Below are positions 1 to 23,601 of a stretch of 24,299 bases of DNA, one piece after another. The notes under the pieces were generated by a model, which did no database searches, had not been told where the DNA came from, and saw only the letters and a list, made by a program, of their open reading frames with translations. This stretch comes from a virus, in IMG/VR virus record IMGVR_UViG_3300028829_004569, positions 1-24,299 of that record. The stretch is one strand, 5' to 3'. Numbering within the stretch: position 1 is the first letter of the stretch; the number at the start of each line of letters is the position of its first letter. The translations under genes were made by a program, and so were the position numbers.

Positions 1-1309
1 TATCAAAAGATATAAAATATGTAGTGTTGACTTTGTATGTTATTCCACTACTAATAGCCATTCTGCCTGAAATGACTCCAACATAAACATTGGTACATTC
101 TATATCTCCGTTAGGTAAATATATTGCATTTTGATATGAGTTATAGTGATTTTTAGTTGCTATGTTTTTATAACTAGGTCCAGTATATATTTTACTCTCT
201 CCATTTGAATCTTTATAACTTATAAAATTACAAGTGTTCTCTGGATTGGTAACTATATAACTATCTCCATAATGGTTAACACTAGCTGTCTTCCAACCAG
301 TTAATTCTGTATCTCCATATAAGAAAGGTCTACCATTATTATCAGCTCCAAAAGCTAAACAAACTCTACTATCAGGTGTTTGTTTGATATTATCTGGACC
401 TAAACTAGTAAGTCTATTTGCTTGGATATCCCCTTCATTTTGAACATTTGTTATTTGATTATCTCCCTCTAGTACAACTAATCCTACTTGAGTATCTCCT
501 TCTGTTGTGACTCTTTCAACTTGAGTATCTCCCTCGTCAGTAATTCTGGATAATTGAGTATCTCCCTCATCTGTAACATTATCTACTACTTCTCCAGAAA
601 TACTATTAATATTTTCTATTTGGGTATCTCCTTCTGCTATTACTCTTTCTACTTGAGCATCACCTTGTTCTTGTATTCTAGTTGTCCCAGTATTAGTTAC
701 CCTTTCTACTTGAGCAGTACCTTCTGCTTCTATTTCATCTAATGCGGTATTTTTATTAGTTTCTATACCTTTCAGAGCCTCATTACTAGCTTCTGTTATT
801 TCATCTAATAGTTGTTGTATTTGTGTTTCTAGTTTACCTACTTGAAAACCTCTCCAACCATCCTCAGTCTTTACCCATACCTCACCATTTTCTAGTGTCG
901 GCATTACTAATACAGTATCTTGTCCATCTCCAACCATCATATTAGATTTCATATAATCATAAATATTTTTAACATCTTCAACTAACTCGTTATATCTATC
1001 TTTAAGTATATTAACATCTGCACCAAAACTAACCTCATATATAGAAGAAGTTGATGCGAATGAATATACGATTTGAATTCTCTCTATATCTTCTAAAGCT
1101 TCTGTATCAGTTATTTCTAAATATTGGTTATCGTTTTCCTCTGTTATTTTATAACTACCACTAGGAATAACGGTATACATTTCTTGTGGTTTTCTCCAGA
1201 AGAATATTGCTTCTGACAATTCTATACCATTAATCTCATATGTAGTTCCTTCTTTATTAAACTCTAAGATATTTCTTAGTAGCTTATTTTGCTTATATAT
1301 ATCAGCCAT
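1..1309 (-). CDS. Tail fibre protein, 3' end outside window (gp17-like)
   Basis: The open frame starts at ATG 1309 behind an AGGAGGG site and runs through 436 codons to the left edge without a stop. The first 160 or so residues have the look of a virion-attachment head. From about residue 190 to 300 the protein is built of 11-residue repeats (unit EGDTQVERVTT; at least seven recognisable copies starting EGD or EGT), which should form a right-handed trimeric coiled-coil shaft. A Gly/Asn/Tyr-rich part follows, as in fibre tips. It is the last gene after the capsid gene and follows a terminator, matching a late fibre gene. T7 gp17 is known to attach by its N-terminus and bind receptor by its C-terminus; here that role is inferred from architecture and context. 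The missing C-terminus may lie at the other end of the window (see findings). Confidence 0.85.
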   Translation of the reverse strand, partial: MADIYKQNKLLRNILEFNKEGTTYEINGIELSEAIFFWRKPQEMYTVIPSGSYKITEENDNQYLEITDTEALEDIERIQIVYSFASTSSIYEVSFGADVNILKDRYNELVEDVKNIYDYMKSNMMVGDGQDTVLVMPTLENGEVWVKTEDGWRGFQVGKLETQIQQLLDEITEASNEALKGIETNKNTALDEIEAEGTAQVERVTNTGTTRIQEQGDAQVERVIAEGDTQIENINSISGEVVDNVTDEGDTQLSRITDEGDTQVERVTTEGDTQVGLVVLEGDNQITNVQNEGDIQANRLTSLGPDNIKQTPDSRVCLAFGADNNGRPFLYGDTELTGWKTASVNHYGDSYIVTNPENTCNFISYKDSNGESKIYTGPSYKNIATKNHYNSYQNAIYLPNGDIECTNVYVGVISGRMAISSGITYKVNTTYFISFD

Positions 1310-1336
1310 CTATTTTCCCTCCTATTATTTTCTGGT

Positions 1337-1373
1337 AAAAAAAAAGAAGAGAAGTTTTACCTCCTCCTCTTCT
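1337..1373 (-). terminator. Rho-independent terminator after the capsid gene
   Basis: On the minus strand a 10-bp stem (AGAAGAGGAG with CTTCTCTTCT, one G-U pair; plus-strand 1364-1373 and 1345-1354) is followed directly by a run of eight or more T. It lies between the major capsid stop and the fibre start, so the fibre is probably transcribed by read-through, keeping capsid protein more abundant than fibre. Confidence 0.85.
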
Positions 1374-1382
1374 CTCTCTTAA

Positions 1383-2210
1383 CTAAGCAATAGCTACTCT
1401 AGTAATGTTAGCTGGGTCAATACAAACTGCTCCAACTGTTTCTGATGCTACTAAGTGATAGCTCATATCTTGTGAAGCATAGTATTCAGCAGAACCCTCT
1501 CTACCATCAGGATTCTCTGCTAATCCACAAGTTCCAGAAGGAATTATAAATATATCATTATCCCCTACTGCGTCTGATATTAATACTTCTGCACCAAAGA
1601 AATAAGTTCCTTTACCATCTCCACCAAATGCTTTTTCATAATCTGCATTTAACACATAATCAGATTCAGAAAGTGTTTGCCAAGAAGCAACACTCATTGC
1701 TACCGCTACACCAGCTACATCTGCGACAGTATTATTGATTAATGCTTTAGCTCCATTAACTCTTCCAATTAACTTAGCTACATTTGTTTTAGTTGCTAAT
1801 CCAGAAGAACTTAAATCTAATTGTTTTAACTCATCATTCTTAGCTAATATAGCATTAATTACTTTTATATCTTCTCTAAGTAAAACAGCATTACCCATAG
1901 ATGTTACCCATTTACCTTTAACGTCTAACTCAGTTTTCATTAAATCTTGTTTAGGTACTCTTTGTGCTGAAGATATAGGTGCTAATGTTACTGGATAAGA
2001 TTTAATATCTCCCGCATTATCTCCATTTCCAGAGAATAAATCCACTGTACCATCTACAGAAGTAGCTCCTTCGACTCTAGCAAACGAATAAGTTTCTGCT
2101 CCTTTTACTGATGCATACTCACAATACTTTCTTAAAACTCCACCTGTTGACTCATTTAAAAAAGCTTTTAGTGCCATTGAATACTTTTGTTCTGTTGTTA
2201 TTGTTGCCAT
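1383..2210 (-). CDS. Major capsid protein
   Basis: A 275-residue protein directly after the scaffold gene and before a strong terminator, the position of the major capsid gene in T7-like phages (T7 gp10A is somewhat longer, about 345 aa). It starts at ATG 2210 behind AAGGAGTG. It has balanced composition with many Ala, Gly, Val and Asp and no membrane segment or signal peptide, as expected for an HK97-fold shell subunit. The N-terminal part is helical (EQKYSMALKAFLNES), like an N-arm, and the middle carries a long helix with basic and acidic faces (about residues 100-135), like a spine helix. No diagnostic motif exists for this fold in sequence, so the call rests on context and size. The upstream leader carries a possible phage promoter two genes away at 2953-2967. 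Confidence 0.8.
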   Translation of the reverse strand: MATITTEQKYSMALKAFLNESTGGVLRKYCEYASVKGAETYSFARVEGATSVDGTVDLFSGNGDNAGDIKSYPVTLAPISSAQRVPKQDLMKTELDVKGKWVTSMGNAVLLREDIKVINAILAKNDELKQLDLSSSGLATKTNVAKLIGRVNGAKALINNTVADVAGVAVAMSVASWQTLSESDYVLNADYEKAFGGDGKGTYFFGAEVLISDAVGDNDIFIIPSGTCGLAENPDGREGSAEYYASQDMSYHLVASETVGAVCIDPANITRVAIA

Positions 2211-2230
2211 ATTTTATCACTCCTTATATT

Positions 2231-2926
2231 TTATAATCCTATTATTTTTAATAACTCTTGTAAACCTTGCTTATCGGCTACTCTATTCTTAATCTCTTTA
2301 ACTACTTTTTTAATATCTCTACCATCTGACATAGCTCTATCTATAGTGTCATATGCTTCATCAATACTCATTGACCTAATTTGTTTCTCAGGTCTTTTAG
2401 GAATAGATTGATTCATATTACCAGTTTGACTTAAAGATTTTTTATACATAACATTCATCATTTTAACTAATATAGGGTTACCCATAATATTATCAATACC
2501 CTTCTCTAGTTCAGTACCTGTATACATATCACTCACAAACGAATGGACGGCTCTATAATTTCTTTTTTCCTCAGAAGTTAATTTATTGCTAAGATTCTGT
2601 CTTATTTCTTCTGGAGAAGGAACTTTATTATCCTCAGCTTCATTTGCCATTTCTTCTACTCTCTCATCTAATATAAACTCAATCTGTTCCTGTGTAAACC
2701 CTTTTTCTTTATATCTATTGGCTTCGGCTTCTAATACGCCTATTACCTCTGGATTATCAAAATCTAATACTTCTTTATACTTTGATAGGTTGTAATCTCC
2801 TACACCATATAACGTTTCATCATCTGTAAACATATCATCGGGTCTAAATTCATCAATTGCTATTTCTTCTTCTGTTGTATTCTCTTCTGGAATAACATCG
2901 ATTTCCTTTTCTATTTCTTCTGCCAT
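2231..2926 (-). CDS. Scaffolding protein (gp9-like)
   Basis: A 231-residue, very acidic protein (N-terminal 60 residues dominated by Glu and Asp) with helical, charged middle and C-terminal segments, including KKVVKEIKNRVADKQ near the end. It sits immediately before the major capsid gene with a 20-base gap, and starts at ATG 2926 behind AGGAGG. Acidic N-terminus, helical body and basic C-terminal capsid-binding end are the usual design of podovirus scaffolds such as T7 gp9. It would direct procapsid assembly and then leave the head. The role is inferred from composition and position. Confidence 0.8.
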   Translation of the reverse strand: MAEEIEKEIDVIPEENTTEEEIAIDEFRPDDMFTDDETLYGVGDYNLSKYKEVLDFDNPEVIGVLEAEANRYKEKGFTQEQIEFILDERVEEMANEAEDNKVPSPEEIRQNLSNKLTSEEKRNYRAVHSFVSDMYTGTELEKGIDNIMGNPILVKMMNVMYKKSLSQTGNMNQSIPKRPEKQIRSMSIDEAYDTIDRAMSDGRDIKKVVKEIKNRVADKQGLQELLKIIGL

Positions 2927-2986: not shown

Positions 2987-3247
2987 TTACATACTATTTA
3001 TCTTAGCTTTTATAGAAATTAAATCTATTTTTAGCTTACCTAAATTATCTCTCCTTTTAGGATATTGATTATATTTATTATAATAAACTTCATCTACTCT
3101 ATTTGAATCTAATACTACTAAGTCTAATAACTCCATTAATTCTTTATCTCCAGAATACTTTGATAATAATTCAACGTATCTTTTATCTGGAGATAATAAT
3201 TCTTTAGCATATATAGCATTAGCTTTCTCTATTCTGTTGTTGTTCAT
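2987..3247 (-). CDS. Small protein between portal and scaffold, unknown function
   Basis: An 86-residue, mostly helical, charged protein without membrane segment. Its start (ATG 3247, behind AGGAGGAAGCT) lies inside the 3' end of the portal gene, overlapping it by 29 bases, so the two are probably translationally coupled. Many podoviruses carry a small gene at this place, but I recognise no family. A minor head or assembly role is inferred only from position. Confidence 0.7.
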   Translation of the reverse strand: MNNNRIEKANAIYAKELLSPDKRYVELLSKYSGDKELMELLDLVVLDSNRVDEVYYNKYNQYPKRRDNLGKLKIDLISIKAKINSM

Positions 3248-4790
3248 TAGCTTCCTCCTGTTGTTCTAATCTCATTTGTTGTATCATATTAAGCTCTTCT
3301 TCTGTAGGAATTAAATCTTTATCAATATCCATTTTTTCAGCTATCCATATATTAGCTTTAGATGTATCAAGAATTACTCCAGCTTGTTGAGCTTGATTTA
3401 TTCCAGAAATTGTTGAAACATAATTCATTAATCCAGTGACATCACCTAGATTACTTGCCTTAGATAATGAGTTTATATATATTAGACTAGCATATGGTAT
3501 AATACCATCTTGTAAAGTCAACATATTGTATTTCAACATTATATTAAATGGAGCCATAAATGTAGGTTGTAATAACTCCGAGTTAATTAATTCATATGTA
3601 TTAGCAAAACGCTTTCTAAACATTTCTTGCATAGTCTGAACAAAAGTAGCTGTAGTACCTTTACCTTGTTCTATATTCATTATCATATTATCTACCATTA
3701 ATGATTGTCTAAAGGCACTTCTAGCACTTGCTATAAGGCTATCTAACGGCATTAAACTACTTCCAGTTGATAGATACTCTATAATACCTTGTTGCCCATC
3801 TTTAAAACTATCTCCACCATAATTAAGCTTACCTTCTGATAAGTCTAAACCATAAAATAATTCTTCATTACCTACAAACATAGCAGCAGGATTTGCTATC
3901 CTTCTTGCTTGTGATTTATATATTTCTTTATATTGCTCTAATTCTTCCAGTAAACCTATGTTATTTACAACTATTGATTTTCCCCAAGGAGTACCTTCTG
4001 TTACGTCCCATCTAAATACTACAAATGGATTATAATTTAAACTCATTTCCTTTAACACAGTCTCCATATCACTTAATACAATCATATAATTATATTTAGT
4101 TATAGTAGTCTCCTCATCATATTCTGGAATAACAACCTCATAAACATCTACATTAGAACTCAAATCGTCCTCTATAATACTTTCTGGTAAAACAACTCCT
4201 CTACCAAATAAATCTAAGATATATTCAGCATTAACTTCTGGATGAAGTTTGAATACTATATTAGGGTCACTATGAGCGTCCTCTAATATATAGAGGTTAT
4301 CTAAGCCCACATAACCATACATAAAGGGTCTTGATGTTGAACCTGTTTCTCTTATACAGTAACATCCAGTACCAACCTTAATAAAGCTCTCAACGGCTTT
4401 AGAAATCTCTTTATAATAATTTGATGATTGGATATACTTAAATACTTTATTAATATCATTCTCTTTAGTTTTATTTATTTCTGCCAGAGTAGATTTAATA
4501 CCATCTCCCTCTTCGGCTATTAGTCTGTCTTCATCTATATATAAATCCGCCCAGTTACCTTGTCTGGGGAAAATAGAATTCATTATAAAACTCTTTAATG
4601 CATCTATTGAATCTGTTACGGCTGAGTCAACTTCCCTTTGAGATTCTAAGATAGGTTTACCATTATCATTTATTTTTGCAAAAGTATCTGTTAAGTCTAA
4701 TACTCTATTATAAACAGTTCTTATATCTGATTTTCTAGACTTTGCTTCCGCTAGATACCATTGTAGTTTACTCTTGTTAACTAACGCCAT
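3219..4790 (-). CDS. Portal protein (gp8-like head-tail connector)
   Basis: At 523 residues it is close to T7 gp8 (536 aa). It starts at ATG 4790 behind GGGGGAAG. Features typical of podovirus portals are visible: an N-terminal helical stretch, a central region with VFRWDVTEGTPWGKS and a long helix (LEELEQYKEIYKSQARRIANP, about residues 280-300) followed by AAMFV, and a C-terminal Gln/Glu-rich tail. The 'G-x-P-W/Y-G-x-S' motif followed by a long helix is well known in T7-like connectors. It would form the dodecameric ring for DNA packaging and tail attachment. The gene precedes the scaffold and capsid genes as in T7. Confidence 0.9.
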   Translation of the reverse strand: MALVNKSKLQWYLAEAKSRKSDIRTVYNRVLDLTDTFAKINDNGKPILESQREVDSAVTDSIDALKSFIMNSIFPRQGNWADLYIDEDRLIAEEGDGIKSTLAEINKTKENDINKVFKYIQSSNYYKEISKAVESFIKVGTGCYCIRETGSTSRPFMYGYVGLDNLYILEDAHSDPNIVFKLHPEVNAEYILDLFGRGVVLPESIIEDDLSSNVDVYEVVIPEYDEETTITKYNYMIVLSDMETVLKEMSLNYNPFVVFRWDVTEGTPWGKSIVVNNIGLLEELEQYKEIYKSQARRIANPAAMFVGNEELFYGLDLSEGKLNYGGDSFKDGQQGIIEYLSTGSSLMPLDSLIASARSAFRQSLMVDNMIMNIEQGKGTTATFVQTMQEMFRKRFANTYELINSELLQPTFMAPFNIMLKYNMLTLQDGIIPYASLIYINSLSKASNLGDVTGLMNYVSTISGINQAQQAGVILDTSKANIWIAEKMDIDKDLIPTEEELNMIQQMRLEQQEEANEQQQNRES

Positions 4791-4799: not shown

Positions 4800-5174
4800 C
4801 TATAATTTTAATGTTAATAAACTCTCTAACTCGTCGTCTTCGTCATCTTCGTCTTCTGTTATTCCAGAAGTTGGTGATGTTTGAGTTTGTTCTATAGCAG
4901 TTCTTTGTTGAGCCAACTCTTTTTCTGCTGCTTCAATCTTTGCTTGCTGTTCCTCTGCTTCCTTTAGTCTTTCTTCTTCCTCTTCTGCTTGTTGCTTAGC
5001 TTGTCTCTTTGCTTCATCAGCTGCCATTATCTGCTCACTAACACCTAATGTACTTACACCCAGCATTGTTCTACCTAATCCAGTATCTCTAAAGAAATGC
5101 TCTACTTCTCTACCAACACTTCTAAAAGGTCTCTCTATAGCTCTTGATATCCTTCTAAATACTCTACGTCCCAT
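4800..5174 (-). CDS. Basic/coiled-coil small virion protein (gp7.3-like by position)
   Basis: A 124-residue protein with three zones: an Arg-rich amphipathic N-terminus (MGRRVFRRISRAIERPFRSV), a short Gly/Leu segment (GLGRTMLGVSTLGVSEQ), and a Lys/Glu/Gln coiled coil (about 55-100), ending in a very acidic tail. It sits 9 bases upstream of the portal gene. In T7 the small basic gp7.3 is encoded just ahead of portal gp8 and is needed for tail assembly and host interaction. The similarity is in position and charge pattern, not in a recognisable motif. ATG 5174 follows GGAGG at a rather long spacing of 11 bases. Confidence 0.7.
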   Translation of the reverse strand: MGRRVFRRISRAIERPFRSVGREVEHFFRDTGLGRTMLGVSTLGVSEQIMAADEAKRQAKQQAEEEEERLKEAEEQQAKIEAAEKELAQQRTAIEQTQTSPTSGITEDEDDEDDELESLLTLKL

Positions 5175-5175: not shown

Positions 5176-6114
5176 TTAATTAATACCTCCTATTTTTATA
5201 TATCCTTCTCTGGATACTAAAATATTATAATTATTTGCTAATCTCTTTATATACCTCTCGTTTCTTATTCCAGAAACCCAATTAAACTCTACATAACTAT
5301 ATTCTGTTATCATTAAATCCACTACTTCTCTATACTTCCATATATCCCCATTATCAAAACTAACCATACTTAAAGCTATCCCGTTATCCTCGCACTTTTC
5401 AGCTATCACCCAACTATCATTATTTCTAAACAACCTATGAATGTCCGGCATTGTACCATCAATTAAGAGGTCATTTAAGCCCTTTAATCTATCTAGGCTT
5501 AATGTTGTAGGGGTAACCTCTAAGAAACTCCTTCCTGAGCCTCTCATAGCCTCTGAGAGCGTATTAGGAATTATATCCCAGTACTTTTTAGGTGTGAAGT
5601 GATGGGAAATACAAACTACTACTAAATCCATTTCTGGTACCATACAATCTTCTAGTTCCGTTACTGGAACTCTTCTAAAATCTATAGGGCTTGTGTAACA
5701 CATATCACTTAATATTCTATGAACCCAAACGTATTTATCTATTAATCTCTCATTCTTTGCGTGAAGAACCCAATTTTCAAGATTTAATATATCATTATTT
5801 TCTCCATAAGTAATGTCGTGGTGTGCGTCAAAATTCCATATTGTACTATTCTTGCACTTATACTTTCTCATTATGTCTACTATCTCATTATGTTCGTCTA
5901 TTATTCTAAACTTTGCTTTACTACATTTACTCTTAACTATTTCTAAAAGCTTAGCAAAAGTATCTATATCTATGTTAGTATCTATTTCCGATACTTCTTG
6001 CTTGATTATATCAATTACTTTCCAAGCTGTTTTTGGTGTCAAATCGTAATTAATATAATCTCTATAAGTGTGTCCATTAAATAAAAAATCTATATCTATT
6101 GACATAATATTCAT
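5176..6114 (-). CDS. Fusion of arginase-like (UPF0489-type) domain and gp13/GNAT-like domain
   Basis: A 312-residue protein. The N-terminal part (about 1-200) carries SIDIDFLF (residues 5-12), DAHHD (96-100) and CISHHFTP (168-175). The arginase/agmatinase superfamily is known for DAHxD and SxDxD metal motifs, and UPF0489 proteins share this fold, so a metal-binding alpha/beta fold is likely, though the motif order differs from true arginases. The C-terminal 85 residues, with EYSYVEFNWVSGIRNERYIK and a terminal GYIKIGG, resemble the end of T7 internal protein gp13, a degenerate acetyltransferase-like fold. It overlaps the upstream gene by one base (TAATG) and starts at ATG 6114; a second ATG at 6105 is less well spaced from GGGAGG. 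Its place before gp7.3-like and portal genes suggests a virion or assembly role. Confidence 0.6.
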   Translation of the reverse strand: MNIMSIDIDFLFNGHTYRDYINYDLTPKTAWKVIDIIKQEVSEIDTNIDIDTFAKLLEIVKSKCSKAKFRIIDEHNEIVDIMRKYKCKNSTIWNFDAHHDITYGENNDILNLENWVLHAKNERLIDKYVWVHRILSDMCYTSPIDFRRVPVTELEDCMVPEMDLVVVCISHHFTPKKYWDIIPNTLSEAMRGSGRSFLEVTPTTLSLDRLKGLNDLLIDGTMPDIHRLFRNNDSWVIAEKCEDNGIALSMVSFDNGDIWKYREVVDLMITEYSYVEFNWVSGIRNERYIKRLANNYNILVSREGYIKIGGIN

Positions 6115-6452
6115 TAACCTTTTCCTCCCTTTAGCTCATAAACTAAATCTGCATTTTCTTTTTCCAGAGACTCTATTTTATTTTGTAGTGTTACGATTTG
6201 CAATATTAAGTTATCTATTCTGGAATCTAAAATATAAACAGATTCATTTGAGTCTTTAATTATCTTAGCAAAATAAACCCTATCATTAACTCTCTCATTT
6301 ATAAACCTATTTGTAAGCTCGTCTACTCGTCTATCCTTATCAACCCTCTCCTTATTCAATTGTAATCCTAGAAATATTATAACACCAGTTAATACAGTGT
6401 TAGTACCATATTTCTTTAATATTTCACATATAACTTGAATTAGGTTAATCAT
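6114..6452 (-). CDS. Single-TM coiled-coil protein, spanin-like (Rz-like) candidate
   Basis: A 112-residue protein with one hydrophobic segment at about residues 19-31 and then a long charged heptad-like region to the end (LDSRIDNLILQIVTLQNKIESLEKE). N-in topology with a periplasmic coiled coil is the design of inner-membrane spanins such as lambda Rz and T7 gp18.5, which lies next to the terminase genes in T7. Here the gene is two genes after the large terminase. Its start overlaps the preceding stop as ATGA and its own stop overlaps the next start as TAATG, indicating translational coupling. No lipoprotein partner is visible, so the spanin call is tentative; a membrane anchor of other kind is possible. 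Confidence 0.55.
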   Translation of the reverse strand: MINLIQVICEILKKYGTNTVLTGVIIFLGLQLNKERVDKDRRVDELTNRFINERVNDRVYFAKIIKDSNESVYILDSRIDNLILQIVTLQNKIESLEKENADLVYELKGGKG

Positions 6453-6667
6453 AGCATTTTCTCTATTTTATCCACCTTCTCATTAAGCTCTCTTAATGGC
6501 TCGGTAATCTCATTCAACGATTTAATATATTCTCTTCTGGAATAAACAAGCTCTATGTTAAATTGTCTCTCTCTATCTATAGCCTTTCTAATGTATCTTT
6601 CTCTATCCAGATGATTTGTAATCAACATCACCATAGCCACACTTATTGTTATCACTCTCCATATCAT
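6449..6667 (-). CDS. Small single-TM coiled-coil protein, lysis-associated candidate
   Basis: A 72-residue protein from ATG 6667, which has the right spacing (8 bases) from AGGAGG; an in-frame GTG three codons earlier is too close to that site. Residues 2-17 are hydrophobic, and the rest is charged and heptad-like (EITEPLRELNEKVDKIEKML). It lies between the large terminase and the Rz-like gene and overlaps the latter by 4 bases. The shape fits a spanin or holin accessory protein, but I recognise no family. Confidence 0.55.
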   Translation of the reverse strand: MIWRVITISVAMVMLITNHLDRERYIRKAIDRERQFNIELVYSRREYIKSLNEITEPLRELNEKVDKIEKML

Positions 6668-6679: not shown

Positions 6680-7936
6680 CTAGTGTTTATATTTATAATA
6701 AGACTTAGCTTTAACACCTCTAAATCTATTATTATTTTTATTGTATTTTATATCTGATTTAATAGCATATCTTATACTATCCAATACATCATCATATAGT
6801 TTTATAGGCTCCTCACTAGCTCCACCTTTCCACACATATTGATAAAACTCTTCTTTACCTTTATTAAACTTATCTCTGATAAATAATAAGTTACCCTCAG
6901 ATAATAAAGTACTAACCTCAGTAATACCCTCTATAACGCTTTTATCTGCATTTATAGCTGGTAGCTTAGCTCTTTGTAAACCACCAACATATTCTGGTCT
7001 AGCACTATCACAATAGAATCTCTGGATATTATAAGTCTTATGAAGTTCCTTACATTTATTTTTCCAGAAATCAAAGTCTTTATGTTGTTCTGCTATCTCC
7101 TCTACTAATATATACTTTCCACTACTCATCTTAGCTAGTACAACAATAGAACCATAGTGCTCATATCCCCAGTCGACACCTGCTATATATCTAACAACAC
7201 CATCTTTATAAGGCATAGCATCTATTAAATGTTTATCTTCTTTAAACATAGGATACACAACTCCTTCCTTAGCTACCCAAACTCCCATTACTTCTCTAAG
7301 ATATCTTATACTTCCCTCTTCGTATAAAGCTAGTTGTCTAGCAATATATTCTGGAGATAAAAAAGAATTATCAAACATAGTGAAATGATGGACCATTATT
7401 TGCAAATGATTATTTTCATCTCTAGTTCCGCCCTTATCTATAAAATCTTTCTTAAAGAAATGACAAGGATTTTCTGTATTTGTATCGGCAAATATCTTTG
7501 CTCCTTCTCCAGAAGTTCTATCAAAACATTCTGTTATAGTGTCCTCGTGTTGAGCTGTTGCTTCATTAATTAGAGTTCCGTGGGAAGTGAATCCTCTTAT
7601 ACTCTTCCAACAATCTGCATTAGCTCCTTGGAATACTGTTATAGTATTGCCAAATAATTCAAATGAATTACTTCTATCTAACTTAATACTTTCACCTAAA
7701 TAGTTTTCAATCTCTCCTATTATATTTCTTTTTACAGAACTAATATTGCTTCCAACTATTATAAACTGTTTACCTTTAAATTTCTGGATATGAAGAAGAA
7801 ATAGTAAGACCATTAAATAAGTTTTACCAGCTCTTTTACCTCCAGATAATATAGTTACATCTGGTTGTTCTTTTAACCATTCCATTAATACATCAAACTG
7901 TTTATTAGTATATTTCTTTCTTAATTTCTCTCTCAT
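6680..7936 (-). CDS. terL: Terminase large subunit
   Basis: A 418-residue packaging motor. The ATPase shows a Walker A motif SGGKRAGKT (31-39), a Walker B region TLINEA with catalytic Glu125, and a coupling-type ADTNTENP (150-157). The C-terminal RNase H-like nuclease has GVDWG with Asp255, FYCD with Asp310 and YDDVLD with Asp382/383, the expected acidic triad. ATG 7936 follows GAGGGG, which overlaps the end of the small-subunit gene two bases upstream. It pumps DNA through the portal and cuts the concatemer. It is shorter than T7 gp19 (586 aa) and closer to the 400-450 aa terminases common in phages of low-GC hosts. All key residues appear intact. Confidence 0.95.
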   Translation of the reverse strand: MREKLRKKYTNKQFDVLMEWLKEQPDVTILSGGKRAGKTYLMVLLFLLHIQKFKGKQFIIVGSNISSVKRNIIGEIENYLGESIKLDRSNSFELFGNTITVFQGANADCWKSIRGFTSHGTLINEATAQHEDTITECFDRTSGEGAKIFADTNTENPCHFFKKDFIDKGGTRDENNHLQIMVHHFTMFDNSFLSPEYIARQLALYEEGSIRYLREVMGVWVAKEGVVYPMFKEDKHLIDAMPYKDGVVRYIAGVDWGYEHYGSIVVLAKMSSGKYILVEEIAEQHKDFDFWKNKCKELHKTYNIQRFYCDSARPEYVGGLQRAKLPAINADKSVIEGITEVSTLLSEGNLLFIRDKFNKGKEEFYQYVWKGGASEEPIKLYDDVLDSIRYAIKSDIKYNKNNNRFRGVKAKSYYKYKH

Positions 7937-9766: not shown

Positions 9767-9809
9767 ACTATAAGTTATTTAATATTATTTTATTCTGGAA
9801 AGAAAAATT

Positions 9810-9837: not shown

Positions 9838-9888
9838 CTTAACTTCTCTTTTCTTTTATCCAGAAATAAAGAATCACCAATTCTCTTA

Positions 9889-10801: not shown

Positions 10802-10858
10802 TCCACATTCCTCCTTATTTTTTTATTCCAGAAATAAAAGAACTAATTAACCCCAATA

Positions 10859-16557: not shown

Positions 16558-18402
16558 TTAAAACTCATTATTAACTGTAGCCCCTATGAGAGCCTCATAG
16601 GCGTCGTTGTTCGCCCTTACCCTAGCTTCACTATCACTACCAAAGACAGACTCCGTATATCCTCTCCTATAGACTTCTACGGGCTTCTTATTTAAATAGA
16701 CTGTACTGTTGTTATACTTTTCAGATAGAGCTTTTTCAAATGCCTTAGGTTTTGCTTTTCTCTCTTTTATTCTATATTCTTTTATTCCAGAGATATCACC
16801 TATTGCCCCATCAACTATTTGTCTAAAAGATAAATTTCTTCTATATTCTCTGTTGAAATTTTGAGCTGTATAATCTAGTTGACTAGACCAGTTTATATTA
16901 CCAGTCACAATTTGCCCTAATATGTAATTATTTAACATAGTTTGTTTGGATATAGAAAGATTGTATTGACTAATAGCTTTAGCTATACCACCCTTATCTG
17001 ACAACTCACTATATAATATATTCTTTGCTTTCTTAGTTTGTTTACCGGCACTAATATAATTAAGAGTTTCTGGAGAAGTTTTATAAAGTTCTACGTCCTC
17101 TACATTAACGACTCCTCTGGACAATAAACTTCTAATCATATTTTCTTTTTGTATCGGGTCATCATCATAACTTTCTATTAAAGATGTAACAGATGATATA
17201 GAAGTACTCCTATCTTGACCCGCGTTTTCATTAGCTTGTATTTCTTGTTTGAATCTACTTGTTTCTGTAGTTGAATACATTTGTACAAACTCTCCATTGT
17301 TTACTATATCTTGAACCGTATCACCAAAGTATTTCTTAGATATATAACTATTTTGCATAATATCAGTAGGTGTAAGTGGAGTTTCCTCTACATCTGAAAT
17401 AGCAATTGTATAGTTACCACTTCTTATATTACTATCTATTCTTCTGTAGTCAGTAACATATTTACTTCTAAGCTTTTCTTTTTCTGCTTCAACCTTTCTA
17501 TCTAATGTATATTTTTGATTCTCTAATTGAGCCTTTAATTTATTTGAATTGTTACGAATAAAATCTTTAGTAGAGTTTTCTAAATTGCTTAGATAAGTAT
17601 CTCTATTTTCTTTATCCAGAGAACCTTCTGCAATAAGATTATCTATCTCAATCTCGTAAACTGCTTTATTCTCCGACCCTTTAGTTAATTGAGTTAAAGC
17701 CTCTTGCTTCTCTTCAATAGACAAATCATTACTATCTATAATCTCTTGAGCCTTTCTTTTTAATCTTTCTCCAGAACCTTTTAATAAAGTATTCATTTTC
17801 ATTTCTCTTATATTACTTTCTGGAATTAAACCTTTAAGTTTATCAAAGCCTTTTAAAGCTTCTTCTCTTGACTTCTCTGCTTCTGTTTTATTATCGTTAT
17901 TTATATAATCGTACATTAATCCAGTAGCTACAAATATTGTATCATCAACTACCTTCTTACTATCATACTCATTCTTTTGACCTTGTAAAACAAAATTCTT
18001 ATTAGCCGCTGACCCGTTAACCGTATTATACCATTGATTAACATCCTCTTCTTTTGTGTACTTTGTATCACCTATAAGAGATTTATTTAGTTCATATACT
18101 TGATTTAATCCATCAATATATGCTTGATAATTATCGTCACTAAACTTATCTTTTCCTTCCCATTGACTCTCATATTCTTGTATTCTATTATTTGCTTCTA
18201 TCTTTAATTTAGCTAATTCATTAGACCTTTTAGCACTATCTAACTTAGTCGCCATTTGCCCAGCTACCTTATACGCTATATCTAGTGATACATTTCCAGA
18301 GGTAACTTTGCTTATATTTTGGGTGTTAATATTAGGCGATATTAAATTAGGGTTGGCTTGTATAGTATTTAAATTAACCTGTTTTATAAACTTGTTTGCC
18401 AT
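16558..18402 (-). CDS. Internal virion protein (gp15-like ejection protein)
   Basis: A 614-residue, Gln/Asn/Lys/Glu-rich helical protein (T7 gp15 has 747). ATG 18402 overlaps the preceding stop by one base (TAATG) behind GGAGG, and the gene ends 16 bases before the gp16-like start. Long stretches such as the region around 150-330 are predicted amphipathic helices with no membrane segment or enzyme motif. In T7, gp15 and gp16 form the hexameric tube that crosses the periplasm. Order, size and coupling support the same role here; I see no short motif that would identify the family on its own. Confidence 0.75.
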   Translation of the reverse strand: MANKFIKQVNLNTIQANPNLISPNINTQNISKVTSGNVSLDIAYKVAGQMATKLDSAKRSNELAKLKIEANNRIQEYESQWEGKDKFSDDNYQAYIDGLNQVYELNKSLIGDTKYTKEEDVNQWYNTVNGSAANKNFVLQGQKNEYDSKKVVDDTIFVATGLMYDYINNDNKTEAEKSREEALKGFDKLKGLIPESNIREMKMNTLLKGSGERLKRKAQEIIDSNDLSIEEKQEALTQLTKGSENKAVYEIEIDNLIAEGSLDKENRDTYLSNLENSTKDFIRNNSNKLKAQLENQKYTLDRKVEAEKEKLRSKYVTDYRRIDSNIRSGNYTIAISDVEETPLTPTDIMQNSYISKKYFGDTVQDIVNNGEFVQMYSTTETSRFKQEIQANENAGQDRSTSISSVTSLIESYDDDPIQKENMIRSLLSRGVVNVEDVELYKTSPETLNYISAGKQTKKAKNILYSELSDKGGIAKAISQYNLSISKQTMLNNYILGQIVTGNINWSSQLDYTAQNFNREYRRNLSFRQIVDGAIGDISGIKEYRIKERKAKPKAFEKALSEKYNNSTVYLNKKPVEVYRRGYTESVFGSDSEARVRANNDAYEALIGATVNNEF

Positions 18403-19025: not shown

Positions 19026-20879
19026 TTAATTATCGATAACAAGGTTTACAAGCGATTGTATTCCTTGCAATTCTACTATTTTATCATTTTCATTAGTTGA
19101 TATCTGGATAGAAAAACCAGTCTTAACTCTTATAGAGGTTCTTTGTTTATATATACTATAAACATCCTCTACACTTGATGGAAGGTTAGTAATAGGCTTA
19201 CCGTCTATTAAAACACCTTCTATTCCTTCTCTATCTTCATTATATAACTTAACTACTATATCGTTTATAATAGATGAGTTATCATATGTATATAATATAC
19301 CACCTTGTGTTAAATTAAAAGGATTTAATGTAATTGTCGCATACTTATAATTCTTTTCTGTAGGAATAAACAAATCTTTATCTGATAATATTTTATCTTC
19401 CAGAGATAAAAACTTTGTAGCTCCACTAGTATCAAGCTCCAATTTAACCTTTCTAAATATTCCATCTGAATCTGCGATATCTATAATATAAATATATTCC
19501 TCGTCTTTACTTCTGCATACAACATAATCTGTATTATCTATAGATACTCTACACAAGTCTTTAAATAGATTCTTAAATGAAAATCTATCTACGTCTACTG
19601 TATTAAAACTAGTTTGTACAGATGTTTTATCTAGTAATAATACTTGTAATGTACCCTTGCTATTTAAGAAATATACTGAATTATTCTTTACACAGAACTT
19701 ATCGGAACAACTTACATTTGATATTACCGATATATTACTTCCTATACTAGTCGGTGTTATTTGAGTACCACCATAACCTATTATATAAACACCAGCAGTT
19801 GTAAGTATAAACAATCCTATATTAGAAATTACCCCAGTTATTTCACCTATCTTATTATCTATAGGGTCTAACTGAAAATAGAATGCGTCATCACTATTAC
19901 TATCATTTCTAAAGTTGCTAGGCTCACTCATTTTACTAGCATAAAATAGTCCGTCTTTATAAAAATAAGTTCTATCTTGATAGAATGCTACTCTTTCTGG
20001 AGAAGAAATATTATCAATCAATTGTCCAAAAGAAAGCAATCCAGAATCCTCTCCAGTCATTGAGGTAAAGTAGTTTCCATTATACTCCTCATCAAATGTT
20101 AAGTCTCCTATCTCCACAGAAGTGTTATTAACTATATATGTTTTGTCATCTTCTATTTCTTCAAAAGTATATAATATACCATATATATCCCCCTTTTGAG
20201 GATTATCAAAGTAATCTATATCAACACTAGATGAATAAGTTGTATATATTCTATTTATCTGGATAGAAGAATTAGGTAAATATATTTTTCCTCCAGAAAC
20301 CTTAATCTTTGGGTCTGATAATGTACTTTGTTGTACTACTCTTAATTTATTCTTTTCTGATGATAGCGAGCTACCAGAGACATAATAAGGATTACTTGAT
20401 ACGACCCATAGGTCTAGCTTAACATCCTCTTTATATCTAATAGGACAATCTATATCGTCAAACGTATCTGACAACTCTATATCGTCATCCATAGAATACG
20501 ATATAATATCGTCTGTACCATTATATAATACAAACTCGTTTTTACCTATGACCTCTATCTTAGTGTTATCTCCTAAGCTATGAGCTAACCCTTGCTCTAT
20601 TTCATTAGTAGTATTATTTAATCTATAAATATATTCTGAGGTTAATATTAATGAATACCCTTTAGCTGTTTCTCTAACATCTAAGATACTTCCTTGTAAA
20701 TCTAAAGTTATTTTATCATATGTTTTAGCTACCTTTAATGACCCTATATCTGTTACTAGAAAGTTAGTTATTTCTTTTGCTCCAGAACTATAAATATCAC
20801 TTGTTCTTATTCCAGATAACCTTTCTCCAATCTCCCCATAGTTCCACATATTGTTAACAACATACTTAGTTTCAGCCAT
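19026..20879 (-). CDS. Tail tubular protein B / nozzle (gp12-like)
   Basis: I choose ATG 20879 (617 residues, starting MAETKYVV), one base after the gp11-like stop; an in-frame ATG four codons earlier lies inside the previous gene without usable spacing. The protein is rich in beta strands, Tyr, Asn, Asp and Gly throughout, as in the propeller-like gp12 nozzle of T7 (794 aa). The N-terminus (NNMWNYGEIGERLSGIRTSD, then NFLVTDIGSLKVAKTY) resembles the conserved start of gp12-like proteins, which often read as a 'G...S.R.D...Y..G...N....G....R' pattern. It would form the tail tip and the DNA channel outlet. Confidence 0.85.
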   Translation of the reverse strand: MAETKYVVNNMWNYGEIGERLSGIRTSDIYSSGAKEITNFLVTDIGSLKVAKTYDKITLDLQGSILDVRETAKGYSLILTSEYIYRLNNTTNEIEQGLAHSLGDNTKIEVIGKNEFVLYNGTDDIISYSMDDDIELSDTFDDIDCPIRYKEDVKLDLWVVSSNPYYVSGSSLSSEKNKLRVVQQSTLSDPKIKVSGGKIYLPNSSIQINRIYTTYSSSVDIDYFDNPQKGDIYGILYTFEEIEDDKTYIVNNTSVEIGDLTFDEEYNGNYFTSMTGEDSGLLSFGQLIDNISSPERVAFYQDRTYFYKDGLFYASKMSEPSNFRNDSNSDDAFYFQLDPIDNKIGEITGVISNIGLFILTTAGVYIIGYGGTQITPTSIGSNISVISNVSCSDKFCVKNNSVYFLNSKGTLQVLLLDKTSVQTSFNTVDVDRFSFKNLFKDLCRVSIDNTDYVVCRSKDEEYIYIIDIADSDGIFRKVKLELDTSGATKFLSLEDKILSDKDLFIPTEKNYKYATITLNPFNLTQGGILYTYDNSSIINDIVVKLYNEDREGIEGVLIDGKPITNLPSSVEDVYSIYKQRTSIRVKTGFSIQISTNENDKIVELQGIQSLVNLVIDN

Positions 20880-20880: not shown

Positions 20881-21393
20881 TTACACCACATCCCTTACAT
20901 ATGGGACAAATTGGTTATTATATAATCTTTGTAGCTCTTGTTCTGTTCTTGTGTTAAGTAATTCTACTCTACTAGAAAAAGCATTCATACTTTCAGATAC
21001 CTTTAAAGCAGTCATTAGTACTAATAGATTATACATATATTCTGGATATTCAGATAAAGCTATAGTTCTACAATATTTTAGATAAACCTCATCATCATAT
21101 GAATATATATAATTACCTTCAAACTCTCCAGTGGAGTTAACAAATCTTAATTTATTAAGATAGTCGACGGGTATATTAAATCTATTCTGTCCCAATTCAT
21201 TAACACCATCTTTATTTAATTTAACAGTCGTTGCGTTAAACCTTAAATCTGTTCTTACGGCTAAGCTTCCAAGGATATCCTCTAATATAGTACTAGCGAA
21301 TTGATAAGTATCACTTCTATTGTCGTTATATGTTGATACTTCACCTATTTCCCTTAGGGCAGCCTCTATTATTTTTCCTCTATCTAAAGACAT
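20881..21393 (-). CDS. Tail tubular protein A / gatekeeper (gp11-like)
   Basis: A 170-residue protein (T7 gp11 has 196), first gene of the tail block and immediately before the nozzle gene as in T7. It has an N-terminal helix (KIIEAALREIGEVSTYND), a central strand-rich part with NRFNIPVDYLNKLRFV (the 'P-x-D/P-L/Y' segment common in gp11-like and adaptor proteins), YCRTIALSEYPEYMYNLLVLMTALKVSES, and a C-terminal helix QELQRLYNN. It starts at ATG 21393 behind GGAGAGG. It would form the ring below the portal and hold the nozzle. Confidence 0.85.
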   Translation of the reverse strand: MSLDRGKIIEAALREIGEVSTYNDNRSDTYQFASTILEDILGSLAVRTDLRFNATTVKLNKDGVNELGQNRFNIPVDYLNKLRFVNSTGEFEGNYIYSYDDEVYLKYCRTIALSEYPEYMYNLLVLMTALKVSESMNAFSSRVELLNTRTEQELQRLYNNQFVPYVRDVV

Positions 21394-21464: not shown

Positions 21465-21476
21465 GTATCCGTATAT

Positions 21477-21665: not shown

Positions 21666-21940
21666 AAATACCTCCTATAAAATGTATAATTATTAATCAG
21701 TTTTTGTATAAATTTTACTCAAAACATCAAAAGTGAAAAAAAGTATGGACCCTTTTTATGTGTAAACTGGTTATATTACTATGTAATAAGAAATAAATGT
21801 AGACTAGATAAACTTTGAAAATTAGTTAATTATTTCTCTTGAAAGTATTATAAATTAGTTTTCAAATATTAAATAGCTTACATAATACTTGTTAATCACA
21901 ATAAGTGAACGAAGTTTATCAAATATTCTGGAATAAAAAA
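21666..21940. promoter_or_regulatory. 275-base gene-free block with a plus-strand promoter-like element
   Basis: No gene is supportable. At 21746-21782 the plus strand has TGGACCCTTT, 12 bases, then TGGTTATAT-TACTAT, the same bipartite layout as the minus-strand element at 11835-11873. It points towards the antisense of the endolysin, so its role is unclear: plus-strand transcript start, or a protein-binding site used in either orientation. A TCTGGA copy and the short dyad TTGT-N5-ACAA are also present. Confidence 0.45.
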
Positions 21941-22342
21941 TTACTTAGTTAATTCAAAGACTTGTCTTCTATTTCTTGGGTCAAAAGAAATATGAATCCA
22001 ATAAGTACTTCCACTATGTTCTAGTATTAGTTGGTCGAATTCTAAGTCAGATTCAGCAATTGCTTTAAACACTTCTTCTATTTTTCTTCCCAGAGGTAAA
22101 AAGTCTATTGCAAATCCCTTTAGATGGGCTGAATTAGTTGCACCTCCAACGGCTCTATTTAATTCAGAACATCTATACCAAGAGTTAACCCTTAGGGGAA
22201 CTCTTAGGTATTCTCTTACCTTTTGTATTCCTACCGTACTTCTCATTAAATTATTTATTAATGTCTCTGGAATAGAATTATCTATATTTAATCTATCAGC
22301 TGTACTAGATTTAATCACTTCTTTATATGTAAAATTAATCAT
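21941..22342 (-). CDS. Endolysin, peptidase M15 (D-Ala-D-Ala carboxypeptidase-like)
   Basis: A 133-residue protein from ATG 22342 behind GGAGGG. SAHLKGFAID gives His73 and Asp80, and YWIHISF gives His117, the three zinc ligands of M15 peptidases; Glu109 in LILEHS is a likely catalytic base. The length matches the M15_3 group of single-domain phage lysins, and RVNSWYRCSELNRAVGGATN before the first motif is typical of it. It would cleave peptide stems of peptidoglycan in the periplasm. There is no signal peptide, so release needs a holin (candidate at 8505-8678). Confidence 0.9.
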   Translation of the reverse strand: MINFTYKEVIKSSTADRLNIDNSIPETLINNLMRSTVGIQKVREYLRVPLRVNSWYRCSELNRAVGGATNSAHLKGFAIDFLPLGRKIEEVFKAIAESDLEFDQLILEHSGSTYWIHISFDPRNRRQVFELTK

Positions 22343-22364
22343 TATCCCTCCTTTAATATTTAAT

Positions 22365-22389: not shown

Positions 22390-22406
22390 CCTCTATTAAA
22401 ATTTTA

Positions 22407-22976
22407 CTATCTAACGCAAGCGCAAGTACCTGAGTTAGCAGCTGTAATAGCTTTTATAATCTCAGCTGTCTCTGCTTTTCTTTCAGCGGTAGCTAGATTA
22501 CGTAAGATATTATCTTTGTCCAATTGTTGCATTAACTCTCTAGTTGCGCACGCTTGCGCAGTTACTTCTTTTTGAGTTGCATTACTTTCTTGTAATATCA
22601 ACTTTTGAGTTTCACAACAACAGTTAGCCTGTTCTTTTTGACCAGCAGTAATCAAATTATTAACATCTCTAAGTCTGTCTGCTTCTCTAAACTCAGCGTC
22701 AGAGAAGTTTTTATTCGTTTGGTCTGTTCTAAGTATCTCTCTAGTTTCTAAAGCTTGAGCAGAAGTTCTAGCTAATGAAGCCTCTAATGCTTGAGCGTGG
22801 CAGTCACTAGCTGTCTTAGCCGCAGTACCATCTGCTAAAGCCGACTCTCTTAAAAAGTTAGTAGGTCCTACTCCCATTCCTGGACCACCATACATTCCAT
22901 TACCAAAAAATCCATTTCCTAATACACCTAAACCTCTTAGTGCTGCAAAGTCCTCGATTCCTATTCCATTTTCCAT
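22407..22976 (-). CDS. Gly-rich/Cys-containing 189-aa phage protein, unknown function
   Basis: I take ATG 22976, nine bases behind AGGAGG; an in-frame TTG two codons earlier is too close to that site. The N-terminal 40 residues are Gly-rich (GNGFFGNGMYGGPGMGVG), followed by a long Ala/Gln/Glu helix. Cysteines occur as SDCHA, ANCCCETQ, QACAT and a final CACVR. Proteins with a Gly-rich head and a CCxTQ-type helical repeat occur in many phages near structural or lysis genes, but I know of no assigned function. It lies between two terminators, so it may be expressed as its own transcript, and this stretch lacks the TCTGGA hexamer, a possible sign of separate origin. Confidence 0.75.
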   Translation of the reverse strand: MENGIGIEDFAALRGLGVLGNGFFGNGMYGGPGMGVGPTNFLRESALADGTAAKTASDCHAQALEASLARTSAQALETREILRTDQTNKNFSDAEFREADRLRDVNNLITAGQKEQANCCCETQKLILQESNATQKEVTAQACATRELMQQLDKDNILRNLATAERKAETAEIIKAITAANSGTCACVR

Positions 22977-23000
22977 ATACAAATACCTCCTAAAGGCTAT

Positions 23001-23037
23001 AAAAAAATATAAAAAATAATCTATTCACATTGGATAG
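23001..23037 (-). terminator. Weak terminator after the 156-aa gene
   Basis: CTATCCA, loop ATG, TGAATAG on the minus strand (7 bp with one C-A mismatch), followed by TTATTTTTTATATTTTTTT. The stem is poor but the T tract is long. Confidence 0.5.
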
Positions 23038-23038
23038 G

Positions 23039-23509
23039 TTATACAAGTTCATCTAAGTAGTCTGTATAGATGATTTCTTTATTCAATTCATCTAACTCGG
23101 CTGTAATTTCCAAGACGGACTCTTGTTTTGCTTCATCTACTTGTGCGTAATATAAGGCTTCTAGATTACCAAGTATTAGTTCCTTTTTCTTGGCTTCTCT
23201 TTTATTCTTAATTACATTTTCGATAAAGGCTTTCTTTTCTGTTTTTGCAAGGGGGAGTTCCTTATATGTCACTCTCTCTAGGCTAAATTCTTGCATCTGG
23301 TTGTAGAACCCATCTACAACACGGAAGATTAATGGTACAAAATCATCATCCTCAAACACATGATATTTAAAGTCTTTAATAAATTTACCTAATGTATGGA
23401 CTTGTAACTCAATGTCCTTAAAGTCTTTTATATCTTTTAGTTGAAGATATTCGATGTTTTGTAGATTAACAATTCCGGACGCATTCTTGTCGATTAATAA
23501 CGCTTTCAT
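23039..23509 (-). CDS. 156-aa protein, possible fibre-associated chaperone
   Basis: ATG 23509 stands behind AAAGGAGG. The product is acidic and mixed strand/helix at first (IDKNASGIVNLQNIEYLQLKD) and then has a long basic and acidic coiled-coil-like half (EKKAFIENVIKNKREAKKKE to AELDELNKE). It lacks membrane segments or enzyme motifs. It follows the fibre fragment on the same strand, the usual place for fibre-assembly chaperones, and the helical C-terminal half would suit that, but no family is recognised. Confidence 0.65.
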   Translation of the reverse strand: MKALLIDKNASGIVNLQNIEYLQLKDIKDFKDIELQVHTLGKFIKDFKYHVFEDDDFVPLIFRVVDGFYNQMQEFSLERVTYKELPLAKTEKKAFIENVIKNKREAKKKELILGNLEALYYAQVDEAKQESVLEITAELDELNKEIIYTDYLDELV

Positions 23510-23601
23510 TTATCGCCTCCTTTTTTAACCATAGATTTTTCTTCCAGAGTTAAGTGTTTCAGCCAAACACATAACAATAATCTCTTATCATATATACCTC
23601 C
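23510..23601 (-). other. Short gap with a 10-codon mini-ORF
   Basis: A perfect AAGGAGG site precedes ATG 23591, whose frame ends after ten codons (MIRDYCYVFG) at TGA 23559. Another ATG in a second frame gives 15 codons. A true leader peptide, a broken small gene or chance are all possible. One TCCAGA copy lies at 23543. Confidence 0.3.

What the first reader, a model, noticed from the sequence alone, without database searches (positions are those of the whole stretch)
240..23548. Roughly tenfold excess of TCTGGA/TCCAGA, balanced on both strands
I count 34 TCTGGA and 37 TCCAGA. From composition (my estimate near 30% G+C) about three per strand would be expected. All genes are on one strand, yet both orientations are equally common, and five copies lie in about 2 kb of non-coding DNA. 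Codon preference (Ser-Gly, Pro-Glu) explains part of the coding copies only. A function on double-stranded DNA is plausible: primase or recombination (Chi-like) site, uptake-like tag, methylation or nuclease-protection mark, or condensation/packaging site. The two empty stretches (about 8.2-9.8 and 22.3-23.5 kb) may be newer DNA.
Basis: partly seen in the sequence, partly recalled or inferred. Interest (0 to 1): 0.8.

Follow-up and report, generated by a model that had tools for sequence, protein, structure and literature searches.

The report
Phage genome tagged with TCTGGA sites
A bacteriophage that probably infects a Fusobacterium-like bacterium carries an exact six-letter DNA word, usually followed by a run of A's, every few hundred bases on both strands; natural selection is keeping it there, but what reads it is not known.

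Summary
TCTGGA occurs 34 times and TCCAGA 37 times, 8.8-fold (dinucleotide) or 5.8-fold (trinucleotide) above expectation, the top-ranked 6-mer of the window. Codon-preserving shuffles give 8.7 and 7.3 copies against 34 and 32. Its codon-shuffle score (12.0) exceeds the maximum 6-mer score of all 70 control segments (mean 4.6, highest 8.1). Five copies lie in 2.4 kb of non-coding DNA (0.56 expected). Half of all CTG and TCC codons sit inside copies. So this is one directional element, selected as DNA. The window is a podovirus-like fragment whose virion genes are ~35% identical to Fusobacterium phages and prophages. None of those, nor the Fusobacteriota chromosome or plasmid DNA tested, is comparably enriched. 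The 'empty stretches' are chance. The reader of the motif is unidentified. I rate a host self-recognition (uptake-sequence-like) tag mirrored in the phage as most likely (0.35), then a phage-encoded reader, then a Chi-like site. A genome of the true host would decide.

The parts
240..245 (+). TCTGGA core (coding)
393..398 (+). TCTGGA core (coding)
545..550 (+). TCTGGA core (coding)
593..598 (-). TCTGGA core (coding)
1195..1200 (-). TCTGGA core (coding)
1533..1538 (-). TCTGGA core (coding)
1800..1805 (-). TCTGGA core (coding)
2028..2033 (-). TCTGGA core (coding)
2610..2615 (+). TCTGGA core (coding)
2748..2753 (+). TCTGGA core (coding)
2886..2891 (+). TCTGGA core (coding)
3149..3154 (-). TCTGGA core (coding)
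3186..3191 (+). TCTGGA core (coding)
3402..3407 (-). TCTGGA core (coding)
4123..4128 (+). TCTGGA core (coding)
4237..4242 (+). TCTGGA core (coding)
4863..4868 (-). TCTGGA core (coding)
5209..5214 (+). TCTGGA core (coding)
5269..5274 (-). TCTGGA core (coding)
6163..6168 (-). TCTGGA core (coding)
6219..6224 (+). TCTGGA core (coding)
6536..6541 (+). TCTGGA core (coding)
6606..6611 (-). TCTGGA core (coding)
7021..7026 (+). TCTGGA core (coding)
7063..7068 (-). TCTGGA core (coding)
7350..7355 (+). TCTGGA core (coding)
7508..7513 (-). TCTGGA core (coding)
7783..7788 (+). TCTGGA core (coding)
7841..7846 (-). TCTGGA core (coding)
8170..8175 (-). TCTGGA core (coding)
8179..8184 (+). TCTGGA core (coding)
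9794..9799 (+). TCTGGA core (non-coding)
9859..9864 (-). TCTGGA core (non-coding)
10542..10547 (-). TCTGGA core (coding)
10827..10832 (-). TCTGGA core (non-coding)
11736..11741 (-). TCTGGA core (coding)
12192..12197 (+). TCTGGA core (coding)
12783..12788 (-). TCTGGA core (coding)
13038..13043 (-). TCTGGA core (coding)
13081..13086 (+). TCTGGA core (coding)
13128..13133 (+). TCTGGA core (coding)
13416..13421 (-). TCTGGA core (coding)
13924..13929 (+). TCTGGA core (coding)
14448..14453 (-). TCTGGA core (coding)
14745..14750 (-). TCTGGA core (coding)
14770..14775 (+). TCTGGA core (coding)
14818..14823 (+). TCTGGA core (coding)
14976..14981 (-). TCTGGA core (coding)
15459..15464 (-). TCTGGA core (coding)
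15681..15686 (+). TCTGGA core (coding)
15766..15771 (-). TCTGGA core (coding)
16301..16306 (+). TCTGGA core (coding)
16786..16791 (-). TCTGGA core (coding)
17069..17074 (+). TCTGGA core (coding)
17116..17121 (+). TCTGGA core (coding)
17615..17620 (-). TCTGGA core (coding)
17770..17775 (-). TCTGGA core (coding)
17819..17824 (+). TCTGGA core (coding)
18295..18300 (-). TCTGGA core (coding)
19103..19108 (+). TCTGGA core (coding)
19399..19404 (-). TCTGGA core (coding)
19996..20001 (+). TCTGGA core (coding)
20040..20045 (-). TCTGGA core (coding)
20258..20263 (+). TCTGGA core (coding)
20292..20297 (-). TCTGGA core (coding)
20781..20786 (-). TCTGGA core (coding)
20811..20816 (-). TCTGGA core (coding)
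21041..21046 (+). TCTGGA core (coding)
21927..21932 (+). TCTGGA core (non-coding)
22266..22271 (+). TCTGGA core (coding)
23543..23548 (-). TCTGGA core (non-coding)

Best explanation
Shown: the phage genome carries a dispersed, directional DNA element, (pyrimidine)-TCTGGA-NN-(A-rich stretch of ~6), about every 340 bp on both strands, kept by selection on the DNA itself. Inferred: it is a self-recognition tag read on duplex DNA by a sequence-specific machine of the host. It works like the uptake signal sequences (an exact short core plus a neighbouring A/T stretch, both strands, mostly inside genes) that temperate Pasteurellaceae phages accumulate to host-like density. On this reading the unidentified host, probably a Fusobacteriota species, has the same motif dense in its chromosome, and a temperate phage living in it has taken on the tag. 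The class of machine (DNA import or recombination) is inferred by analogy only.
For: Duplex-level selection: enriched on both strands and in all reading frames, 62 vs 14.7 by codon shuffle in called ORFs; 6 of 12 CTG and 9 of 17 TCC codons inside copies; 26 of 45 Ser-Gly pairs use TCTGGA; Ser-Gly and Pro-Glu pairs themselves in excess (45 vs 31, 25 vs 11) while Gly-Ser and Glu-Pro are not. Composite element: A count at +8..+13 is 3.5 vs 2.2 (p = 7e-15), on plus and minus copies alike, and absent after one-mismatch cores. Even spread over all modules, including a terminase from another phage lineage. Precedent: temperate Pasteurellaceae phages accumulate host uptake sequences while phages >150 kb, likely lytic, lack them (PMC6776037). 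Type IV pilus-linked natural competence is reported for F. nucleatum (cited in PMC11705814). Virion relatives are Fusobacterium phages with integrases, and the window shares the GATC, CATG and CTTAAG avoidance seen in Fusobacterium DNA.
Against: No host genome with the motif was found: F. vincentii, Ilyobacter and Sebaldella DNA show no enrichment (O/E 0.6-1.3). Related Fusobacterium phages and prophages are neutral or depleted. One-mismatch cores are not in excess and lack the A-rich stretch, whereas uptake-driven motifs usually leave many near-matches (own knowledge). The density (2.9 per kb) is above the ~0.75 per kb reported as saturation for Hin-USS. Whether this phage is temperate is not known from the fragment.
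Confidence: 0.35

Rival explanations
1. Phage-encoded reader: a DNA-binding protein of the phage itself (small terminase, an HTH protein, an internal virion protein, or one encoded in the missing part of the genome) uses the dispersed sites for condensation, packaging, selective replication or protection of its own DNA.
For: Enrichment is confined to this phage and absent from relatives and from the Fusobacteriota DNA tested. Exact cores only, with no sign of decayed copies. Even density in genes of different origin. An excess of neighbours 40-50 bp apart (8 vs 1.8 expected) hints at a cooperative footprint. The window encodes HTH-like and RHH-like proteins (weak matches).
Against: I know of no dsDNA phage with dozens of dispersed asymmetric packaging or condensation sites. 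No protein could be tied to the motif; the one structure model (putative nuclease 9258-9695) was unusable (pLDDT 42).
Confidence: 0.27
2. Chi-like site: TCTGGA switches the host's RecBCD/AddAB-type nuclease from degradation to recombination, and a phage without its own inhibitor is packed with sites as a shield on both strands.
For: E. coli/Salmonella lambdoid phages without recombinases over-represent Chi and phages with Gam avoid it (PMC3784561). Here O/E is 5.8 under the trinucleotide model that the paper also used. phiBB and phiKSUM, annotated with Gam-like proteins, are depleted in TCTGGA (O/E 0.38 and 0.25).
Against: Known Chi is enriched in the host chromosome; F. vincentii shows 359 vs 394 by codon shuffle. 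The paper found 0.2 Chi per kb in phages, concentrated between origin and packaging site; here 2.9 per kb, even and strand-balanced. phiKSUM avoids CCAG/CTGG in general (72 vs 276), so its depletion is not specific. An A-rich stretch at +8..+13 is not a Chi feature known to me. The fragment does not show whether an inhibitor gene exists.
Confidence: 0.17
3. Mutational or repair bias: very-short-patch-like repair turns TCTAGA into TCCAGA/TCTGGA, giving both strands equally without a function.
For: TCTAGA, the word that a single T-to-C or A-to-G change turns into TCCAGA or TCTGGA, is depleted (2 vs 13.5), and the process would be strand-symmetric.
Against: TCTAGA is equally depleted in F. vincentii, FNU4 and phiKSUM without any gain of TCTGGA. 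The sum of the three words is 73 against 21.6 expected, more than conversion could supply. It does not explain the A-rich stretch or the excess Pro-Glu and Ser-Gly pairs.
Confidence: 0.06
4. Recognition site of a methyltransferase or other protective mark (R-M, BREX-like, orphan methylase).
For: Asymmetric 6-mers are typical targets of type III/IIG and BREX methylases (own knowledge).
Against: Phages normally avoid such sites, as this window avoids GATC (0 vs 60) and CATG (2 vs 51). The nearest precedent for enrichment linked to orphan methylases is HIP1 in cyanobacterial genomes (PMC4390886), which is palindromic. No methylase was recognised in the window.
Confidence: 0.07
5. Codon usage, protein repeats or chance.
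For: Ser-Gly and Pro-Glu codon pairs account for most of the roughly 16 coding copies that codon shuffles give.
Against: Codon shuffle maxima 18 and 14 vs 34 and 32; window score 12.0 vs a highest control of 8.1 in 70 segments; non-coding copies; A-rich stretch on both strands.
Confidence: 0.01

Closest known systems
DNA uptake signal sequences (Hin-USS/Apl-USS of Pasteurellaceae; DUS of Neisseria)
   Same: Short asymmetric exact core, both strands about equally, mostly inside genes; carried by temperate phages of such hosts (PMC6776037). The A/T stretches next to the Hin-USS core (own knowledge) resemble the A-rich stretch here.
   Different: Core of 6 rather than 9-12 bases, density about four times higher, no excess of near-matches, and no host genome with the motif found.
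Chi sites in phages (PMC3784561)
   Same: Strongly over-represented asymmetric motif in a phage genome, depleted in phages annotated with Gam-like proteins.
   Different: Even and strand-balanced, ~15 times denser than the 0.2 per kb reported, A-rich flank, not enriched in the Fusobacterium chromosome tested.
HIP1 highly iterated palindrome of cyanobacteria (PMC4390886)
   Same: Extreme genome-wide iteration of one short word.
   Different: HIP1 (GCGATCGC) is palindromic and chromosomal, with orphan methylases for internal words; here asymmetric with a directional flank, in a phage, and no methylase in the window.
Fusobacterium phages phiBB and FNU4, prophages L012-L017, phage-plasmid pFvar_27725
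   Same: Portal, capsid and tail tubular proteins (23-43% identity).
   Different: None has comparable TCTGGA enrichment: O/E 0.28-1.2, at most 2.3 in L015 (13 vs 5.6, mostly one strand).

Membership tests
DNA uptake signal sequence | motif highly enriched in the chromosome of a competent host | tested here: inconclusive
   Not enriched in F. vincentii (800 kb), Ilyobacter or Sebaldella samples, but the true host is unknown
DNA uptake signal sequence | exact short asymmetric core on both strands, mostly inside genes | tested here: met
   34 + 37 copies, balance p = 0.81, 66 coding copies
DNA uptake signal sequence | A/T-rich stretch at fixed distance from core (as in Hin-USS) | tested here: met
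   A-rich +8..+13, p = 7e-15
DNA uptake signal sequence | excess of one-mismatch versions | tested here: not met
   144 one-mismatch cores, none above 1.6 times expectation, without the A-rich stretch
DNA uptake signal sequence | DNA with the motif is taken up preferentially | not testable with these tools
   needs a transformation assay
Chi site | over-represented in the host core genome | tested here: inconclusive
   not in F. vincentii; true host unknown
Chi site | enriched in phages lacking RecBCD/AddAB inhibitors, depleted in those with Gam | tested here: inconclusive
   phiBB and phiKSUM (Gam-like) depleted, but FNU4 and phiPaco, without annotated Gam, are not enriched; window incomplete
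Chi site | attenuates the host exonuclease in cis | not testable with these tools
   needs an exonuclease protection assay
HIP-like iterated motif | palindromic | tested here: not met
   TCTGGA is not self-complementary; flank is directional
Restriction-modification or BREX target | site avoided in the phage | tested here: not met
   71 vs 8.1 expected, while GATC is 0 vs 60
Very-short-patch repair product | gain of TCCAGA/TCTGGA wherever TCTAGA is lost | tested here: not met
   F. vincentii and phiKSUM lose TCTAGA without the gain
Primase recognition site | phage primase with matching template preference | not testable with these tools
   no primase identified in the fragment

The most novel reading that the evidence does not exclude
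A dsDNA phage marks its own genome with dozens of directional composite sites (TCTGGA plus A-rich stretch, often in pairs 40-50 bp apart) read by a phage-encoded protein to tell its DNA from the host's for packaging, condensation or protection: a dispersed self-tag with no counterpart known to me in tailed phages.
Probability: 0.2. Interest if true: 0.85.

Novelty: new variant of a known kind. Interest (0 to 1): 0.6.

Why it matters
A short word kept at about six to nine times expectation, at the cost of rare codons and even amino-acid choices, shows a strong and constant selection on phage DNA whose agent is unknown. If it mirrors the host, it predicts an uptake or recombination code in Fusobacteriota, a phylum for which the papers searched here report none, and would let phages be assigned to hosts by the tag. 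If it is the phage's own, it would be a dispersed self-recognition code new to tailed phages as far as I know. Either way one host genome, or one binding pull-down with a short duplex, makes it testable.

Tried and rejected
Codon and amino-acid preference and chance (70-segment null): rejected. Newer DNA in the empty stretches: not significant. Very-short-patch repair: rejected. Family-wide motif: rejected for phages with ~35% identical virion proteins. Fusobacterium-wide or Ilyobacter/Sebaldella host motif: not seen. A different 'dialect' in each relative: the best lead, CCGG/TCCGGA in F. necrophorum phages (phiPaco CCGGAA z = 6.5), contains a palindrome and is much weaker; AACGCT in pFvar falls to z = 4.6 after codon shuffling; CATTGA in L059/L060 lacks any flank. 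Searches for closer relatives in viral contigs and genome contigs by terminase, capsid, portal, tail tube and the 5176 protein gave no closer phage. Structure of the putative nuclease: model unusable. Accession guesses for more Fusobacteriota plasmids: two of four found.

Full report
WHAT IS THERE. The window (24,299 bp, 30.9% G+C) is a virus record of the same length. Its genes all lie on the minus strand: a terminase large subunit, a T7-type portal (head-tail adaptor), capsid, tail tubular proteins A and B, an endolysin and large unassigned proteins that look like internal virion proteins. Positions 1-1309 are an open-ended ORF with EGDTQ-type repeats. Portal, capsid and tail proteins are 25-43% identical to Fusobacterium phages phiBB and FNU4 and to IMG/VR prophages L012-L017, and more distantly (23-34%) to the phage-plasmid pFvar_27725 of F. 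varium. The terminase is of another lineage, 47% identical to Staphylococcus phages. The window lacks GATC (0 vs 60) and CTTAAG (0 vs 12) and nearly lacks CATG (2 vs 51); Fusobacterium phages and the F. vincentii chromosome under-use the same words. The host is therefore probably a Fusobacteriota species (inference).

THE OBSERVATION. 34 TCTGGA and 37 TCCAGA. O/E is 8.8 by dinucleotide and 5.8 by trinucleotide model, and it is the highest of all 6-mers. The excess is limited to the exact word: all 18 one-mismatch words lie between 0 and 1.6 times expectation.

IT IS NOT CODON USAGE. Shuffling synonymous codons over the whole proteome gives 8.7 and 7.3 copies against 34 and 32; no shuffle of 1,000 exceeded 18 or 14. 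Copies occur in all three frames of both orientations. Six of 12 CTG codons and nine of 17 TCC codons are inside copies; 26 of 45 Ser-Gly pairs read TCTGGA. Even the protein has bent: Pro-Glu 25 vs 11.3 expected and Ser-Gly 45 vs 30.8, while Glu-Pro and Gly-Ser are not in excess. Five copies lie in 2,448 bp of non-coding DNA with 0.56 expected. In 70 control segments of about 11-24 kb (F. vincentii chromosome, Fusobacterium phages and prophages, other phages and plasmids) the highest codon-shuffle score of any 6-mer is 4.6 +/- 0.9, maximum 8.1; the window scores 12.0.

IT IS A COMPOSITE, DIRECTIONAL ELEMENT. Aligned on TCTGGA, 87% of copies have a pyrimidine before the core (no G at all), and an A-rich stretch follows at +8 to +13, strongest at +11. 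This holds for plus-strand copies (A at +11 in 26 of 34, where A is 30% of that strand, p = 3e-8) and minus-strand copies (27 of 37, where A is 39%, p = 3e-5), so it is not a coding effect. The mean number of A's is 3.52 against 2.19 for other NNNGGA words (p = 7e-15). Words one mismatch away have no A-rich stretch (2.2). Density is even over genes (p = 0.62), including the terminase of foreign origin. Gaps of 40-50 bp between neighbours are in excess (8 vs 1.8, p = 2e-4 before correction for the 17 bins examined), in all orientations; this is suggestive only.

WHERE ELSE. Not enriched in phiBB (6 vs 16), FNU4 (15 vs 18), phiHugo (4 vs 12 in 30 kb), phiPaco (25 vs 20), phiKSUM (11 vs 43) or pFvar (3 vs 11); FNU1 has 8 copies in 131 kb; prophages L012-L017 are about neutral, the highest being L015 with 13 vs 5.6. 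Not enriched in 800 kb of the F. vincentii chromosome (359 vs 394 in coding DNA by codon shuffle, 30 vs 29 in non-coding DNA), Ilyobacter or Sebaldella plasmids. No closer relative was found in any collection searched. The true host was not identified, which is the main gap.

MECHANISM. Shown: selection at the DNA level for an exact core plus A-rich stretch, independent of strand and gene. Inferred: a protein reads it on duplex DNA, because the preference covers the flank and both strands. Three readings survive. (1) A host tag of the uptake-sequence type mirrored by a temperate phage: temperate Pasteurellaceae phages do exactly this and large, probably lytic ones do not (PMC6776037), and natural competence linked to type IV pili is reported for F. 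nucleatum (cited in PMC11705814). (2) A phage-encoded reader, supported by the absence from every relative and Fusobacteriota sample tested and by the lack of decayed copies. (3) A Chi-like site: in lambdoid phages Chi is over-represented without recombinases and avoided with Gam (PMC3784561), and two Fusobacterium phages annotated with Gam-like proteins are low in TCTGGA; but one of them avoids CCAG/CTGG altogether, and density, evenness and flank do not fit. I put these at 0.35, 0.27 and 0.17. Restriction or methylation targets, repair bias and chance are unlikely.

KNOWN OR NEW. It works like a genome-wide iterated recognition word, a known kind (USS/DUS, Chi, HIP1). It meets some but not all defining features of an uptake sequence and is not filed as one. 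The word, its A-rich companion, its density and its restriction to one phage among relatives were not found in the papers searched; absence from that library is not proof of novelty.

Noticed in passing
window 1-24299: GATC absent (0 vs 60), CTTAAG absent (0 vs 12), CATG (2 vs 51) and TCTAGA (2 vs 13.5) nearly absent, AAATTT low: probable host restriction systems.
   Followed up: partly
L026, L009, L016: F. necrophorum phage phiPaco and relatives are rich in CCGG, TCCGGA and CCGGAA (phiPaco CCGGAA 46 vs 13; L016 14 vs 1.3), a word close to the window's motif but palindromic at its centre.
   Followed up: partly
L036 (NZ_CP084075.1): A 2.1-Mb Fusobacterium vincentii record filed as plasmid pSB055A looks like a chromosome.
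   Followed up: no
L037-L086: F. vincentii chromosome strongly under-uses CTNNAG words (CTAAAG 113 vs 780, CTGAAG 91 vs 451, CTACAG 15 vs 297, CTGCAG 6 vs 167), suggesting an R-M target; FNU4, annotated with an Eco57I-like methylase, avoids CTAAAG and CTGAAG too.
   Followed up: no
window 10169-10801 and 11178-11795: Two weakly similar proteins (22% identical), one of which matches phiKSUM CDS0104; function unknown.
   Followed up: partly
window 6680-7936: Terminase belongs to a Staphylococcus/Streptococcus siphovirus lineage while portal, capsid and tail are of the Fusobacterium podovirus-like type: module exchange.
   Followed up: no
L057 (NZ_CP028104.1): F. varium plasmid pFvar_27725 is a phage-plasmid of the same wider family, sharing the 5176-6114 protein (34%).
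   Followed up: partly
L059/L060: CATTGA/TCAATG 64 copies in 20.6 kb (57 vs 20 in coding DNA by codon shuffle), no flank signal.
   Followed up: partly
window, neighbouring motif copies: Gaps of 42-49 bp between neighbouring copies recur (8 cases vs about 1.8) in all orientations.
   Followed up: partly
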